NCBI GenBank assembly: GCA_031268125.1
Contig: JAIRXT010000110.1
Coordinates: 1 to 35,827, forward strand
DNA length: 35,827 nt
Direction of reading: 5' to 3'
Source: Treponema sp.
GTDB lineage: Bacteria > Spirochaetota > Spirochaetia > Treponematales > Breznakiellaceae
Each line of letters begins with the position of its first letter. Position 1 is the first letter of the stretch. This document shows positions 5,836-15,312 of this stretch, one piece after another. Position numbers and translations under genes: made by a program. The notes below the pieces were generated by a model. The model was not told where the DNA came from and did no database searches. It saw nothing but the letters and a program-made list of their open reading frames with translations.

Positions 5836-6660
5836 ATGGAACCGTATCCGGGAAACAAACCCGGCGTTTTATTTACAGAAGAGGAGAGCCTTTTCCCGGT
5901 TATCAACTACCTGGTATACCGGGAATGTCATCCGTGGTGGGTTATTAAAAAACACCCGGTAGACAGGTTTGATATGACCTATGTAATCCAGGGCGGAGCA
6001 CGGTATGTCATCGACGGGACGTCTTATGAGCTTACGCCGGGGGACCTGCTCTGCCTTAGAGAAGGCACACTAAAGGAAGCGGCTACCTACAGCAAAAATT
6101 TTATGCACTGCTTTTCCGTCAATTTTGAACTACGGGATATTCGGAATCAGGCTGTATTTCTTCCCTTTCCCCAATTCAGCCGTATCGGCATACTTCCCGA
6201 TCTTATCCAGCATTTCCAAGAACTTGTACATATTTCACTTGTCCGGCAGCCCGGCTATATGCTGAAATGCGCGGGGCTTTTGCTCCTTATTTTACACCGT
6301 ATATATGAATTAACCGTTCTGAATATAGGCGCGGATGTAAAAGACAGCAGAATACAAAATATTATCAGGTATATCGTACAGCATTACGCGGAACAACTTA
6401 GCGTCCGCTGCCTTGCCGATAAAGCAAAGCTGAACCCCGCGTACCTGGGGGCGCTTTTCAAGAAGGAAACAGGGGAATCGATACATCAATATATTGCGAA
6501 AATCAGGGTACGAAACGCCAAAAACATCCTAAGCGCCGGCGGATACCGCGTGTCGGAAGTGGCCGAACAGTGCGGTTACTGCGACATATACCACTTTTAC
6601 AAGCAATTCAAAACCATTACCGGGAAAGCGCCTTCGCGGTATTTGCCCCACAATAAGTGA
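5836..6660 (+). CDS. AraC-family transcriptional regulator (cupin + HTH)
   Basis: C-terminal LNPAYLGALFKKETGESIHQYIAKIRVRNAKNILSAGGYRVSEVAEQCGYCDIYHFYKQFKTITGKAPSRY; divergent from the ABC cluster. Confidence 0.93.
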   Translation: MEPYPGNKPGVLFTEEESLFPVINYLVYRECHPWWVIKKHPVDRFDMTYVIQGGARYVIDGTSYELTPGDLLCLREGTLKEAATYSKNFMHCFSVNFELRDIRNQAVFLPFPQFSRIGILPDLIQHFQELVHISLVRQPGYMLKCAGLLLLILHRIYELTVLNIGADVKDSRIQNIIRYIVQHYAEQLSVRCLADKAKLNPAYLGALFKKETGESIHQYIAKIRVRNAKNILSAGGYRVSEVAEQCGYCDIYHFYKQFKTITGKAPSRYLPHNK

Positions 6661-6680
6661 TTAGAATTGCAACAAGTCCA

Positions 6681-6709
6681 TTGACTTTTTCCTGGAAAAG
6701 TGCCATAGT
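6681..6709 (+). promoter_or_regulatory. Sigma70-like promoter (TTGACT-N17-CATAGT)
   Basis: Consensus spacing; predicted start about 6715, the first base of the first hairpin. Confidence 0.5.
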
Positions 6710-6714
6710 ATGGG

Positions 6715-6840
6715 AAGGTAGCCTATATCTACCTTTAGGGCGCTTAACCTTCGGGTTATTCGACCCTGTATAATCCGGGTAAACGGCCGGATTATTGGGC
6801 CCCCCAGTTTCCCTCCCATGGATAAGGGGGGCCTTTTTTT
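6715..6840 (+). ncRNA. Candidate structured small RNA (four tandem stem-loops)
   Basis: AAGGTAG/CTACCTT; AGGGCG...TAACC-UUCG-GGTTA...CGACCCT; ATAATCCGG/CCGGATTAT; GGCCCCCC/GGGGGGCC-T7. Confidence 0.5.
6798..6840 (+). terminator. Intrinsic terminator
   Basis: GGCCCCCC (6798-6805)/GGGGGGCC (6826-6833) followed by T7. Confidence 0.75.
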
Positions 6841-6869
6841 GCCCTTTTACCGGTAGTTTTGGAACAAGC

Positions 6870-9260
6870 TTATTTGACAATTTTTTCGCGGGGCAGGTAT
6901 TTTTGCAGAATTTCCCGCAGCTCACCCAGAATAATCGGCTTGGCAAGAAAATCGTCCATCCCCGCCTGCAGGAATTGTTCCCGGGCCCCGGACAGGGCAT
7001 TCGCCGAAAGCGCAATGATAATCATGGCGGCGAAACGGCCGCCCAGGCTCCTGATTGCCCGGGTAGTATCCAGCCCGTCCATGCCGGACATCATGTGGTC
7101 CATAAAAACAATGTCGTAACCGGCCTGCTTTACCTTTTCAATGGCTTCTTTTCCGCCGGCGGCGGTATCTGTACTAATGCCGTACTGTTCCAGTAAACCC
7201 TTGGCCACCACAAGGTTTACCGGGTTATCGTCAACTACCAGCATCCTGGAATTTACAACCTTAAAGGCGGCCGCCGCTCCCTCTCCGGTTTTTGTATGCC
7301 GGATTCGGTAATCTTTTTTCCCGTTCAGCACATCCGCCAGGGCGCTTACCAGAACGGGCCGGTTCAGCGAATTCGGTATAAGGCTGTCGTATTTTTCCGA
7401 TGCCTCCTTGAGGAGCACAAATTTTAAATTAATATTACCCTGATATTCCGTAAACTTGTCCTTGCCGGAACTGTCAAGAAAAATATGGGTAAAGCCGCCG
7501 GCCCCTATCAGCTCCCGGATTCTGCCGGGTTCCCCGGACACCTCGCCGGGAACACCCAGGCTCTCCAGCATATCCCGGAACGCCCCGGCGTTGTAGGGAA
7601 CAGATTCGTAGCAGAGTACCCTGAGCCGTTCCGGGTTGTCCACGGCTGCCAGCTTCCCCTGGTGCGGCCCCGTGCAGACAATATAAAAAGAAAAGGTAGA
7701 ACCCTGGCCGTATACGCTTTCCACGCTCACGCTGCCGCCCATCAATTCCACCAGGCGGCGGGTTATGGCGAGTCCCAGGCCGGTACCCTCGACAGACCGG
7801 TTTTTACGGGTATCAAAACGCTCAAATTTGGTAAAAAGATTTTTTAGATTATTTGCGGCAATGCCCATCCCCGTATCTTTGACGGAAAAATGGAGCTGCA
7901 AATCCCCGCCTTCCGGGAATTCCGGCCATACGCAAAGCTGAACACAGCCCTTGGGCGTAAACTTAACGGCATTGGTAAGAAGATTAACCAAACACTGCTT
8001 AAGCCGGATTTCATCGGTGTTTATAATGGGCGGTATATCCTTTGAGATAGTGATGGTAAAAGCAATCCCCGCGCCGGCGGCTTTAAGGCTGATCATATTA
8101 ATCGTATCGTTGATAAACGAAATAAAATTAAAGGGCTGGGGAATAATTTCCATTTTCCGGGCGTCGATTTTGGAAAAATCGAGAATGTCATTAATGATGT
8201 TCAACAGGGACAGCGCCGCACCCTTGATCGTATCTGCCCTGGCCGCCTGTTCAGGATCCAGGGAATTCTGGAGCAGGAGATCGGTCATGCCGACAATGGC
8301 ATTCATCGGCGTTCTTATTTCGTGGCTCATATTTGCAAGGAAATCGCCCTTGGCCCGGGCCAGCGACTCCGCCTCATTTTTGGCGTTCATAAGCTCGGTA
8401 ATATCGATCCATTCAAAAAACCGGGAATATTTTCTTTCTTCAAGGGTGGTTGAGCGCATCCAAAGCCAGTATTTTTCACCCCTCACGGTAACCGGAAATA
8501 CATCCGCTACATATTCATCCCGCTCCATAATTTCCTGGAAGATCATTCTTATTTCCCCGGGAGGAAATATATCAAGCAGGGGCCGGCCAAGAACATAGGG
8601 CCGGGCAATGCCAAGCCATTTCGCCAGAGTATCGCTGATATAATCTACTTCTGCTTTTTCGTTGACAATAACCAGGAACGAAGGAGTTGTTTTAAGCACT
8701 ATTTCAAAGGTCTTTTTGGTTTTTTCAATCTCCACAACCTGGCGTCTAATCAAACACAATACGGTGTAAAGCAAAAGGCCAAGCATATCATGAATAAGGA
8801 ATTCCAGCGCCCCCTGGTACCACGGAAATTCCGGTCCCAGAATATTAAAGCCGGGAAAAACCACCAGGGGTATTAAAATAACGTTGGTAAGACCCATATA
8901 GATTAAAAAACCGCGGGGATAGAGAAAAGAAAAACTGACAACTGTCCAAATAATAGCAAAAATGACAAGAATTTTGTCTGTTCCCAGCACCGCGGTAAAC
9001 ACCAGCTCAACAAGTACGGGAAGAAACGGCAGAAGCCACGATTTAAGTTCCGGCTTAATCCGGTATGGCAGACCGATGCAGGCTACTATAATTATATCCG
9101 CGGATGCAGCAATCAGGTGGCCAAGCCGTTCTGCCCCGGGGGGAAGAAACACAAAACAGTAGATCAGGGCGATGATCAAAAAGAATATATCCGCGGTAAT
9201 AACAACCCACCGCACAATCCGGGTATCCATCCAGGACCAGGTAATGTCCGTCTTGCTCAT
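6870..9260 (-). CDS. Hybrid histidine kinase (multi-TM, PAS, HisKA, HATPase, receiver)
   Basis: FLANMSHEIRTPMNAIVGMTDLLL; LKQCLVNLLTNAVKFTP; GTGLGLAITRRLVELMGGSVSVES; MLVVDDNPVNLVVAKGLL...IVFMDHMMSGMDG. Confidence 0.95.
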   Translation of the reverse strand: MSKTDITWSWMDTRIVRWVVITADIFFLIIALIYCFVFLPPGAERLGHLIAASADIIIVACIGLPYRIKPELKSWLLPFLPVLVELVFTAVLGTDKILVIFAIIWTVVSFSFLYPRGFLIYMGLTNVILIPLVVFPGFNILGPEFPWYQGALEFLIHDMLGLLLYTVLCLIRRQVVEIEKTKKTFEIVLKTTPSFLVIVNEKAEVDYISDTLAKWLGIARPYVLGRPLLDIFPPGEIRMIFQEIMERDEYVADVFPVTVRGEKYWLWMRSTTLEERKYSRFFEWIDITELMNAKNEAESLARAKGDFLANMSHEIRTPMNAIVGMTDLLLQNSLDPEQAARADTIKGAALSLLNIINDILDFSKIDARKMEIIPQPFNFISFINDTINMISLKAAGAGIAFTITISKDIPPIINTDEIRLKQCLVNLLTNAVKFTPKGCVQLCVWPEFPEGGDLQLHFSVKDTGMGIAANNLKNLFTKFERFDTRKNRSVEGTGLGLAITRRLVELMGGSVSVESVYGQGSTFSFYIVCTGPHQGKLAAVDNPERLRVLCYESVPYNAGAFRDMLESLGVPGEVSGEPGRIRELIGAGGFTHIFLDSSGKDKFTEYQGNINLKFVLLKEASEKYDSLIPNSLNRPVLVSALADVLNGKKDYRIRHTKTGEGAAAAFKVVNSRMLVVDDNPVNLVVAKGLLEQYGISTDTAAGGKEAIEKVKQAGYDIVFMDHMMSGMDGLDTTRAIRSLGGRFAAMIIIALSANALSGAREQFLQAGMDDFLAKPIILGELREILQKYLPREKIVK

Positions 9261-13713: not shown

Positions 13714-15312
13714 TTAGCGCCTTACGGCGCCGCGCTTAAGCTGTAAAAGTTCCTGGAGCCCCAGACGGTTAAGCTGGGCAACATAAGTGTCCCATTCACG
13801 GTCAATGTCCGCCTGGCCGCTTACCCATTCTGCCTGCTTCTGCACGACATAATCGCTGACGGCTGTTTGAAGATCCGCCGCCCTCCGGGCATTGGCCGCA
13901 GTCAGCCATAACTGGGGCATAACTTCTTTTTCAAGGAAGGGCTTGTACAGGGCGTCCCGGACTTCTTTGTCCTTGTATTCGTTCTCATAACCCGGTTTGG
14001 GCTGTTCTTTCCAATTGGGCCGCCGGAATTTGGGTAAAGAAGGTATCGAATACCCTCCCCAGCCGTTCATGTCCCGCTCGTCCTGATTCCAGGACGTGGT
14101 ATTAACAGGCAGCCAATACTGGGTACCGTTCTCCAGATTCGTAAGATTCCAGGTCTTCCCCATAGGTCCCGCATCACATTCGGTGCTGTGAATGGGATCG
14201 TATATCCGGTCCAGCCAGTCGATAATCCGCTGGGCTTTGGCCTGGGCCTTGTCGGTAATGGCAAACTGGGTGCGGAACAGGGTCATCCCGTTGTTGTTGT
14301 TACGGAATACCGGGTTTGTTACCCCCGGGGCCCGGAGAACCGGTATTGGCGTATAGCCGTACCAGTTCTTTGAAGGATCTGTATCTATAATGCTGGGTTC
14401 AATTTCGGCAACGTAATCGCCCGTACCGTAGGCGATGGAAGAACCGTAAAGCCCCTGTTTCCCCTTGGCCTTCCAGGTCTCCAAATTCTGGGTATAGAGT
14501 TCCCGATCCACCAGGCCCTCTTTGTAAAGCCCCGCGAACCACTTGATAAATTCCCGGTACTCCGGCCGGATGATAGTGCTTTCTATCTGGCCGTTAATGA
14601 CGGAAAAATACCCGGCGTTTATCCCTGCTCCGGACGCGTTTACCCCGAACCAGCCCGCCAGGGTACCCAGGTTCAGGTTATTCGGATCCCCGGAGAAGGG
14701 GATGATCTGCTGGCCGTTCACCGCGGGAATCCTGTCCCGGAAGGCGATTAACACCTGCCGGAATTCGTCGGTGGTGGTGGGCATTTTAAGGCCAAGCTGA
14801 TCCAGCCACACCTGGTTAATCCAGGGGCTAAAGGAGACAATGGGCTCCTCTACGACATACGGCGGTGAATAGATGTGGCCGTCGGGAAGGGTCATGCTCT
14901 GGCGGATCCCGGGCCGGTCCAGGGCTTCTTTGATATTCACGGTATTGGCGATGTAACTTTCCAGCGGAATAATGGCGCCTTCCCCGGACAAGGTCATAAT
15001 ATCGTTGTCGTTGAGCAGCCAGCCCCCAATAGCATCGGGATAGTTACCGGTATTCAGCATGATGTTCTTCTGTTCCAGAGCCGCCTGGTAGGGATAAATC
15101 TGGGGCTGGACCCGGACGCCGGATTCTTTGGCAATTACATCATACAGGGCATACCAGCCGGGCCCGACTGCCCGGTCCGCGTCTACCAGCAGGGTAAAGG
15201 TGGTTTCCCCGGAAACCGAAGGAGCCGCAGTACTTTGACGCCCTCCCCCTCCGAACAACAATCCTGCGGATACCAGCATTGATACCGCAACAAGGAAAAA
15301 AATCTTCCTCAT
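13714..15312 (-). CDS. Extracellular solute-binding protein, sugar ABC transporter (second cluster)
   Basis: Start at MRKIFFLVAVSMLVSAGLLFGGGGRQS chosen over upstream ORF start; SBP-like sequence; permeases adjacent. Confidence 0.87.
   Translation of the reverse strand: MRKIFFLVAVSMLVSAGLLFGGGGRQSTAAPSVSGETTFTLLVDADRAVGPGWYALYDVIAKESGVRVQPQIYPYQAALEQKNIMLNTGNYPDAIGGWLLNDNDIMTLSGEGAIIPLESYIANTVNIKEALDRPGIRQSMTLPDGHIYSPPYVVEEPIVSFSPWINQVWLDQLGLKMPTTTDEFRQVLIAFRDRIPAVNGQQIIPFSGDPNNLNLGTLAGWFGVNASGAGINAGYFSVINGQIESTIIRPEYREFIKWFAGLYKEGLVDRELYTQNLETWKAKGKQGLYGSSIAYGTGDYVAEIEPSIIDTDPSKNWYGYTPIPVLRAPGVTNPVFRNNNNGMTLFRTQFAITDKAQAKAQRIIDWLDRIYDPIHSTECDAGPMGKTWNLTNLENGTQYWLPVNTTSWNQDERDMNGWGGYSIPSLPKFRRPNWKEQPKPGYENEYKDKEVRDALYKPFLEKEVMPQLWLTAANARRAADLQTAVSDYVVQKQAEWVSGQADIDREWDTYVAQLNRLGLQELLQLKRGAVRR

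What the first reader, a model, noticed from the sequence alone, without database searches (positions are those of the whole stretch)
6681..6840. Candidate unannotated small RNA with promoter, four tandem stem-loops and terminator
Between the AraC stop (6660) and the convergent histidine kinase (ends 6870) is a self-contained transcription unit. TTGACT-N17-CATAGT predicts a start near 6715, exactly where the first stem begins (AAGGTAG cctatat CTACCTT). It is followed by AGGGCG..TAACC-UUCG-GGTTA..CGACCCT with a UUCG tetraloop, then ATAATCCGG/CCGGATTAT, then GGCCCCCC/GGGGGGCC with T7. It matches no RNA family I can name. It could instead be a structured AraC 3' UTR.
Basis: partly seen in the sequence, partly recalled or inferred. 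Interest (0 to 1): 0.75.

Follow-up and report, generated by a model that had tools for sequence, protein, structure and literature searches.

The report
New conserved treponeme small RNA family
This stretch encodes a real, about 125-base, non-coding RNA with its own start and stop signals; relatives in at least 11 other genera of one spirochaete family (named ones are Treponema-type genome bins) keep its folded shape while changing its letters, and it matches no RNA family in the public Rfam library.

Summary
Window 6681-6840 contains a sigma-70-type promoter, three hairpins and an intrinsic terminator. A model built without the window finds it (64.9 bits, E 1.5e-13) and 17 further strong copies plus one divergent copy in 18 of 202 genomes of the same family, across 12 genera. 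No convincing member appeared outside the family. Each strong copy has a promoter 6-8 nt before hairpin 1 and a terminator after hairpin 3. Ten of 19 helix pairs show compensatory changes (0/500 shuffles; slid controls 30-47% paired). Loops 1 and 3 are complementary and partly covary, suggesting an intramolecular kissing loop. The UUCG tip is an optional extension. Neighbours differ between genera and the downstream gene lies in either orientation, so the AraC 3'UTR and riboswitch readings fail. Two genera share the locus (before tRNA-Thr), with a relic and empty sites in relatives. Rfam has no match. Most likely it is a trans-acting sRNA working without Hfq (none found in 26 family genomes); a C-rich anti-Shine-Dalgarno-like terminator loop (11 of 19 copies) is the candidate pairing site. 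The RNA gene is well supported; its mode of action is inferred. New sRNA family of a known kind.

The parts
6681..6709 (+). sigma-70-type promoter: TTGACT, 17 nt, CATAGT, extended -10 (TGC)
   Evidence: equivalent TTGAc/TTGCt-N16-18-TATaaT with TG extension at the same distance (6-8 nt) before hairpin 1 in the strong homologues (G100 and G022 read by eye)
6715..6735 (+). hairpin 1 (AAGGTAG / CTACCTT, loop CCTATAT 6722-6728); predicted 5' end of the RNA at about 6715-6717
   Evidence: stem conserved in 19 copies with one compensatory pair
6737..6767 (+). hairpin 2 (AGGGCG / CGACCCT with a bulged A at 6763), carrying an extension TAACC-TTCG-GGTTA (6745-6758)
   Evidence: the core stem is conserved, the tip is optional and varies between genera
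6770..6795 (+). hairpin 3 (ATAATCCGG / CCGGATTAT, loop GTAAACGG 6779-6786)
   Evidence: 6 of 9 pairs with changes on both sides
6722..6786 (+). predicted kissing interaction of loop 1 with loop 3: 6722-6786, 6723-6785, 6726-6781, 6727-6780, 6728-6779 (the two middle positions are unpaired in the window)
   Evidence: 88% of cells paired against 25-41% for slid registers; C-G to U-A in window and G062, A-U to C-G and U-A to A-U in G172
6798..6840 (+). intrinsic terminator: GGCCCCCC / GGGGGGCC then T7
   Evidence: a terminator follows hairpin 3 in the copies listed
6808..6817 (+). C/U-rich run TTTCCCTCCC in the terminator loop, anti-Shine-Dalgarno-like; candidate mRNA-pairing site (inferred)
   Evidence: comparable UUCC(C)-rich run in the long terminator loops of 11 of 19 copies (interrupted by one G in G099)

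Best explanation
Window 6715-6840 is the gene of a free-standing, roughly 125-nt structured small RNA of a family restricted, as far as searched, to one spirochaete family whose named members are Treponema-type genome bins. It is transcribed from its own sigma-70 promoter and ended by its own terminator. Three hairpins form a compact domain, probably closed by a kissing interaction of loops 1 and 3. Shown by comparative sequence: the gene unit, strand, fold and homology. Inferred: it acts in trans on mRNAs without Hfq, with the C-rich loop of the terminator pairing to Shine-Dalgarno regions to block translation, while the three-hairpin domain gives stability or binds an unknown partner.
For: Homologues by blastn and covariance model. 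Covariation: 98.9% of cells paired, 10 of 19 pairs and 23 cells with changes on both sides, 0/500 shuffles as high, slid controls 30-47% paired. Strand: 14 G-U cells against 3 A-C cells, so the + strand pairs better (348 against 337 of 352 cells). Recurrent promoter and terminator. Kissing pairs covary. Unlinked to any one gene, downstream gene in either orientation. Same locus before tRNA-Thr in two genera, with a separate promoter for the tRNA. Hfq family not found in 26 genomes, 18 of which carry the RNA. C-rich loop in 11 of 19 copies; a comparable CCUCCUCCC loop motif is an anti-SD motif in rhizobial alpha-r14 sRNAs (PMC10746234).
Against: No transcript data could be examined. The C-rich loop is missing or reduced in about 8 of 19 copies, so it cannot be the only function. 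The most conserved part is the three-hairpin domain, not the C-rich loop, which would also suit a protein-binding or ligand-binding RNA. No target was predicted or tested. The RNA is absent from most genomes of the family (present in 18 of 202, and in only a few of the 46 best assemblies), so it is dispensable.
Confidence: 0.6

Rival explanations
1. A protein-binding or titrating RNA: the compact three-hairpin kissing domain sequesters a regulatory protein or part of the translation or transcription machinery, and the terminator loop is incidental.
For: The three-hairpin core is far more conserved than the terminator, including loops and a bulged A. The C-rich loop is lost in about 8 copies.
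Against: No repeated protein-binding motif such as multiple GGA loops was seen by eye (not formally scanned). The C-rich loop is kept across several genera.
Confidence: 0.22
2. A cis-acting leader such as a riboswitch with terminator, controlling the downstream gene.
For: A compact aptamer-like fold followed directly by a terminator. In several loci the next gene is on the same strand (G018, G148, G147, G153, G207b).
Against: In the window and G011, G022, G208, G210, G144 the next gene points the other way. Downstream genes are unrelated between genera. In G062 and G171 the downstream tRNA has its own promoter.
Confidence: 0.06
3. A structured 3' UTR of the AraC gene, expressed only by read-through.
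For: AraC ends at 6660, 21 nt before the promoter. One other copy (G207b) also follows an AraC gene.
Against: The two AraC proteins are only 23% identical. Other copies have unrelated or divergent upstream genes. Promoters are conserved.
Confidence: 0.03
4. A mobile or decaying repeat element whose hairpins are conserved by recent spread, not by function.
For: Patchy presence, differing neighbourhoods, two copies in G207, relics in G173 and G138.
Against: Compensatory changes show selection on the RNA fold. Copies are single per genome except G207, no transposase-type neighbours were seen among the genes scanned, orthologous location in two genera, no match in phage or plasmid collections.
Confidence: 0.05

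Closest known systems
alpha-r14 / NfeR1 sRNA family of rhizobia (anti-Shine-Dalgarno loop sRNAs)
   Same: Stand-alone, several hairpins, C-rich anti-SD-like unpaired motif (PMC10746234).
   Different: There the CCUCCUCCC motif sits in each of three hairpins whose stems vary. Here it is only in the terminator loop, is not kept in all copies, and the stems are the conserved part. No Rfam relationship.
C-rich-motif sRNAs of Gram-positive bacteria (RsaE/RoxS, LhrC type; from general knowledge)
   Same: C-rich loops pairing with Shine-Dalgarno regions, usually working without Hfq.
   Different: No homology detected by Rfam; different architecture, with a kissing-loop domain here.
Purine-riboswitch-type kissing-loop RNAs (from general knowledge)
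   Same: Two hairpin loops predicted to kiss and form a compact fold next to a terminator.
   Different: No closing P1 stem around the two hairpins, no fixed downstream gene, no Rfam match.
Borrelia burgdorferi sRNAs (PMC5216591, PMC10319736; seen as search results)
   Same: Spirochaete small RNAs.
   Different: Different spirochaete lineage; the covariance model found no relative outside the family among 395 genomes drawn across the phylum.

Membership tests
Any Rfam 15 family | Score at or above the family's gathering threshold | tested here: not met
   best sub-threshold hit in the window 17.9 bits against a gathering score of 49.5 (anti-hemB).
The new treponeme sRNA family (model R1) | Significant match to a covariance model built from other genera without the window | tested here: met
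   64.9 bits, E 1.5e-13.
The new treponeme sRNA family (model R1) | Own promoter 6-8 nt before hairpin 1 and terminator after hairpin 3 | tested here: met
Stand-alone trans-acting sRNA | Not tied to one downstream gene | tested here: met
Stand-alone trans-acting sRNA | Discrete transcript of the predicted size | not testable with these tools
   No RNA data held.
Hfq-dependent sRNA | Hfq present in the genome | tested here: not met
   0 of 26 genomes, with positive controls ringing. The window genome is only 77% complete.
Riboswitch / cis leader | Conserved downstream gene on the same strand | tested here: not met
Anti-Shine-Dalgarno loop sRNA (alpha-r14 like) | Conserved CCUCC-type motif in an unpaired loop | tested here: inconclusive
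   11 of 19 terminator loops carry a UUCC(C)-rich run; about 8 do not.
Anti-Shine-Dalgarno loop sRNA (alpha-r14 like) | Experimentally shown pairing with target mRNAs | not testable with these tools
   Needs bench work.

The most novel reading that the evidence does not exclude
A two-module small RNA in a bacterial family without a detectable Hfq. The kissing-loop three-hairpin module would work as a sensor or protein-binding switch: several copies also fold into an alternative rod in which the loop-1 and loop-3 strands pair outright. The detachable C-rich terminator loop would deliver anti-Shine-Dalgarno repression. In short, a ligand- or partner-gated sRNA.
Probability: 0.15. Interest if true: 0.8.

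Novelty: new member of a known kind. Interest (0 to 1): 0.5.

Why it matters
One review lists only 6 annotated sRNAs for Spirochaetes (PMC9029176, Table 1), and Rfam holds no match for this one. It is defined by strong covariation, with a predicted tertiary contact, an exact transcription unit and a clear gain/loss pattern, in a family where no Hfq was detected. It gives a directly testable handle on RNA-based regulation in these spirochaetes.

Tried and rejected
Rfam at gathering and permissive thresholds: only sub-threshold chance hits. Weak model hits outside the family (G044, G058, G253, G347) and the second weak window hit at 14797-14848 (14 bits, inside a long ORF) were set aside; of the four outside hits only G044 was inspected, and it has no promoter or matching fold. 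Weak in-family hits G003 and G088 lack the promoter and fold. Neighbour-gene conservation as a clue to function: none beyond genus-level or sister-genus synteny. Orthologous histidine-kinase loci in the window's genus do not show the RNA, nor do the ychF loci of genus g73 other than G208 and G210 that were printed; the neighbouring DNA differs, so no clean empty-site comparison was possible there. Viral-contig pattern scans gave no answer; phage and plasmid collections had no match. Literature searches for a described treponeme sRNA of this kind found none in the library.

Full report
OBSERVATION. The region 6661-6870 folds better than 198 of 200 dinucleotide shuffles (z -2.6). Promoter and terminator pattern matches alone would be weak evidence. 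Rfam has no match, for the window or for better-conserved relatives.

HOMOLOGUES. A blastn of 6661-6869 against 61 related genomes gave four clear matches in other genera of the same family (E 2e-22 to 2e-4). A pattern scan of named genomes found further copies in Treponema sp. and Spirochaetaceae MAGs (Im510_bin72, Ncb351_bin73, Gx481_bin22, Kf353_bin43). These bin names look like termite-sample codes, but that is a guess from memory and was not verified. A covariance model built from seven relatives, without the window, finds the window at 64.9 bits, E 1.5e-13, and 17 further strong copies in the family; with the divergent copy in G154 the total is 19 copies in 18 of 202 genomes and 12 genera. 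G207 has two copies. Searches of 396 genomes of the order and 395 of the phylum found no convincing member outside the family.

FOLD AND STRAND. On the 19-copy alignment 98.9% of cells form standard pairs, 10 of 19 pairs and 23 cells show changes on both sides, and none of 500 shuffles reaches this; sliding the partners by 1-3 columns drops pairing to 30-47%. The alignment was fitted to the model, so it leans towards it, but the seven-copy MAFFT alignment gives the same picture (5 pairs with double changes, 0/500). The 14 G-U cells against 3 A-C cells make the + strand the better-pairing one, in agreement with promoter and terminator.

ANATOMY. Every strong copy has a TTGAc or TTGCt -35, a 16-18 nt spacer and a TATAAT-like -10, mostly with a TG extension, 6-8 nt before the first stem (in G100 and G022 the script picked another site and the promoter was read by eye). 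The RNA therefore should begin at hairpin 1. Hairpin 2 has a conserved core AGGGC(G/A)...(C/U)GACCCU with a bulged A and a variable tip: a short loop in some genera, an added hairpin (UUCG in the window) in others. Hairpin 3 is followed by the terminator.

LOOP-LOOP CONTACT. Loop 1 (CCAUCAU in most) is complementary to loop 3 (GUGAAUGG). Five positions pair in all 18 strong copies; the middle two pair in about half. Compensatory changes occur: C-G to U-A in the window and G062, A-U to C-G and U-A to A-U in G172. In total 88% of cells pair against 25-41% in slid registers, although the count of pairs with double changes alone does not beat the shuffles (82/500). I take an intramolecular kissing loop as likely but not proven. 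In four copies (G147, G099, G208, G210) the computed minimum-energy fold instead pairs the same strands as a rod, so a two-state RNA is conceivable.

CONTEXT. Neighbours differ from genus to genus: AraC and histidine kinase (window), an ABC-3 transporter operon and a PALP enzyme (G018), recR (G100), a glutamyl/glutaminyl-tRNA synthetase (G207a), ychF (G208, G210), DEAD/Lhr-type helicases (G022, G153), tRNA-Thr/tRNA-Trp/nusG (G062, G171). The downstream gene is sometimes sense and sometimes antisense. This excludes a leader or a 3' UTR as a general explanation. In G062 and G171, from two genera, the RNA sits at the same place before tRNA-Thr, and the tRNA appears to have its own promoter. G173 keeps a relic lacking hairpin 3, and G170 and G175 have no recognisable copy there. 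So the gene is inherited vertically at least in part and lost repeatedly. MAG incompleteness adds to the patchiness.

MECHANISM. No Hfq was found in 26 genomes of the family, including 18 carriers. Eleven of 19 terminators have a long loop with a UUCC(C)-rich run, such as UUUCCCUCCC (window), UUCCCCUCCC or UUUCCUCCUU, complementary to Shine-Dalgarno sequences. By analogy with anti-SD loop sRNAs of rhizobia (PMC10746234) I propose translational repression in trans. This step is inferred; the copies without the motif are the main argument against it and for a protein-binding rival.

VERDICT. The gene, fold, strand and distribution are well supported by comparison; transcription is untested, and the mode of action is a hypothesis.

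Noticed in passing
window 6853-6869: The end of a dispersed short repeat (TAGTTTTGGAACAAGC; elsewhere a palindrome GCTTGTTCCAAAACTAACCGAGTTTTGGAACAAGC) with 49 matches at up to 2 mismatches in the genome against 1 for the reversed control. It also recurs in same-genus G001 and looks REP-like.
   Followed up: partly
window 6662-6676 and 6854-6868: Two 15-mers 80% alike flank the sRNA gene 192 nt apart; possibly chance or linked to the dispersed repeat.
   Followed up: no
L089 471-547 (G173) and L095 (G138): Decayed relics of the sRNA: G173 keeps promoter, hairpin 1 and part of hairpin 2 before tRNA-Thr; G138 keeps hairpin 3 and terminator only.
   Followed up: partly
L077 and L084 (G207): Two diverged copies of the RNA in one genome, one beside a glutamyl/glutaminyl-tRNA synthetase and one after an AraC gene; possible subfunctional pair.
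   Followed up: no
L055 210-279 (G154): A divergent member with a longer hairpin 1, no loop-1/loop-3 complementarity, but the same promoter type and a UUUCCUCCUU terminator loop.
   Followed up: partly
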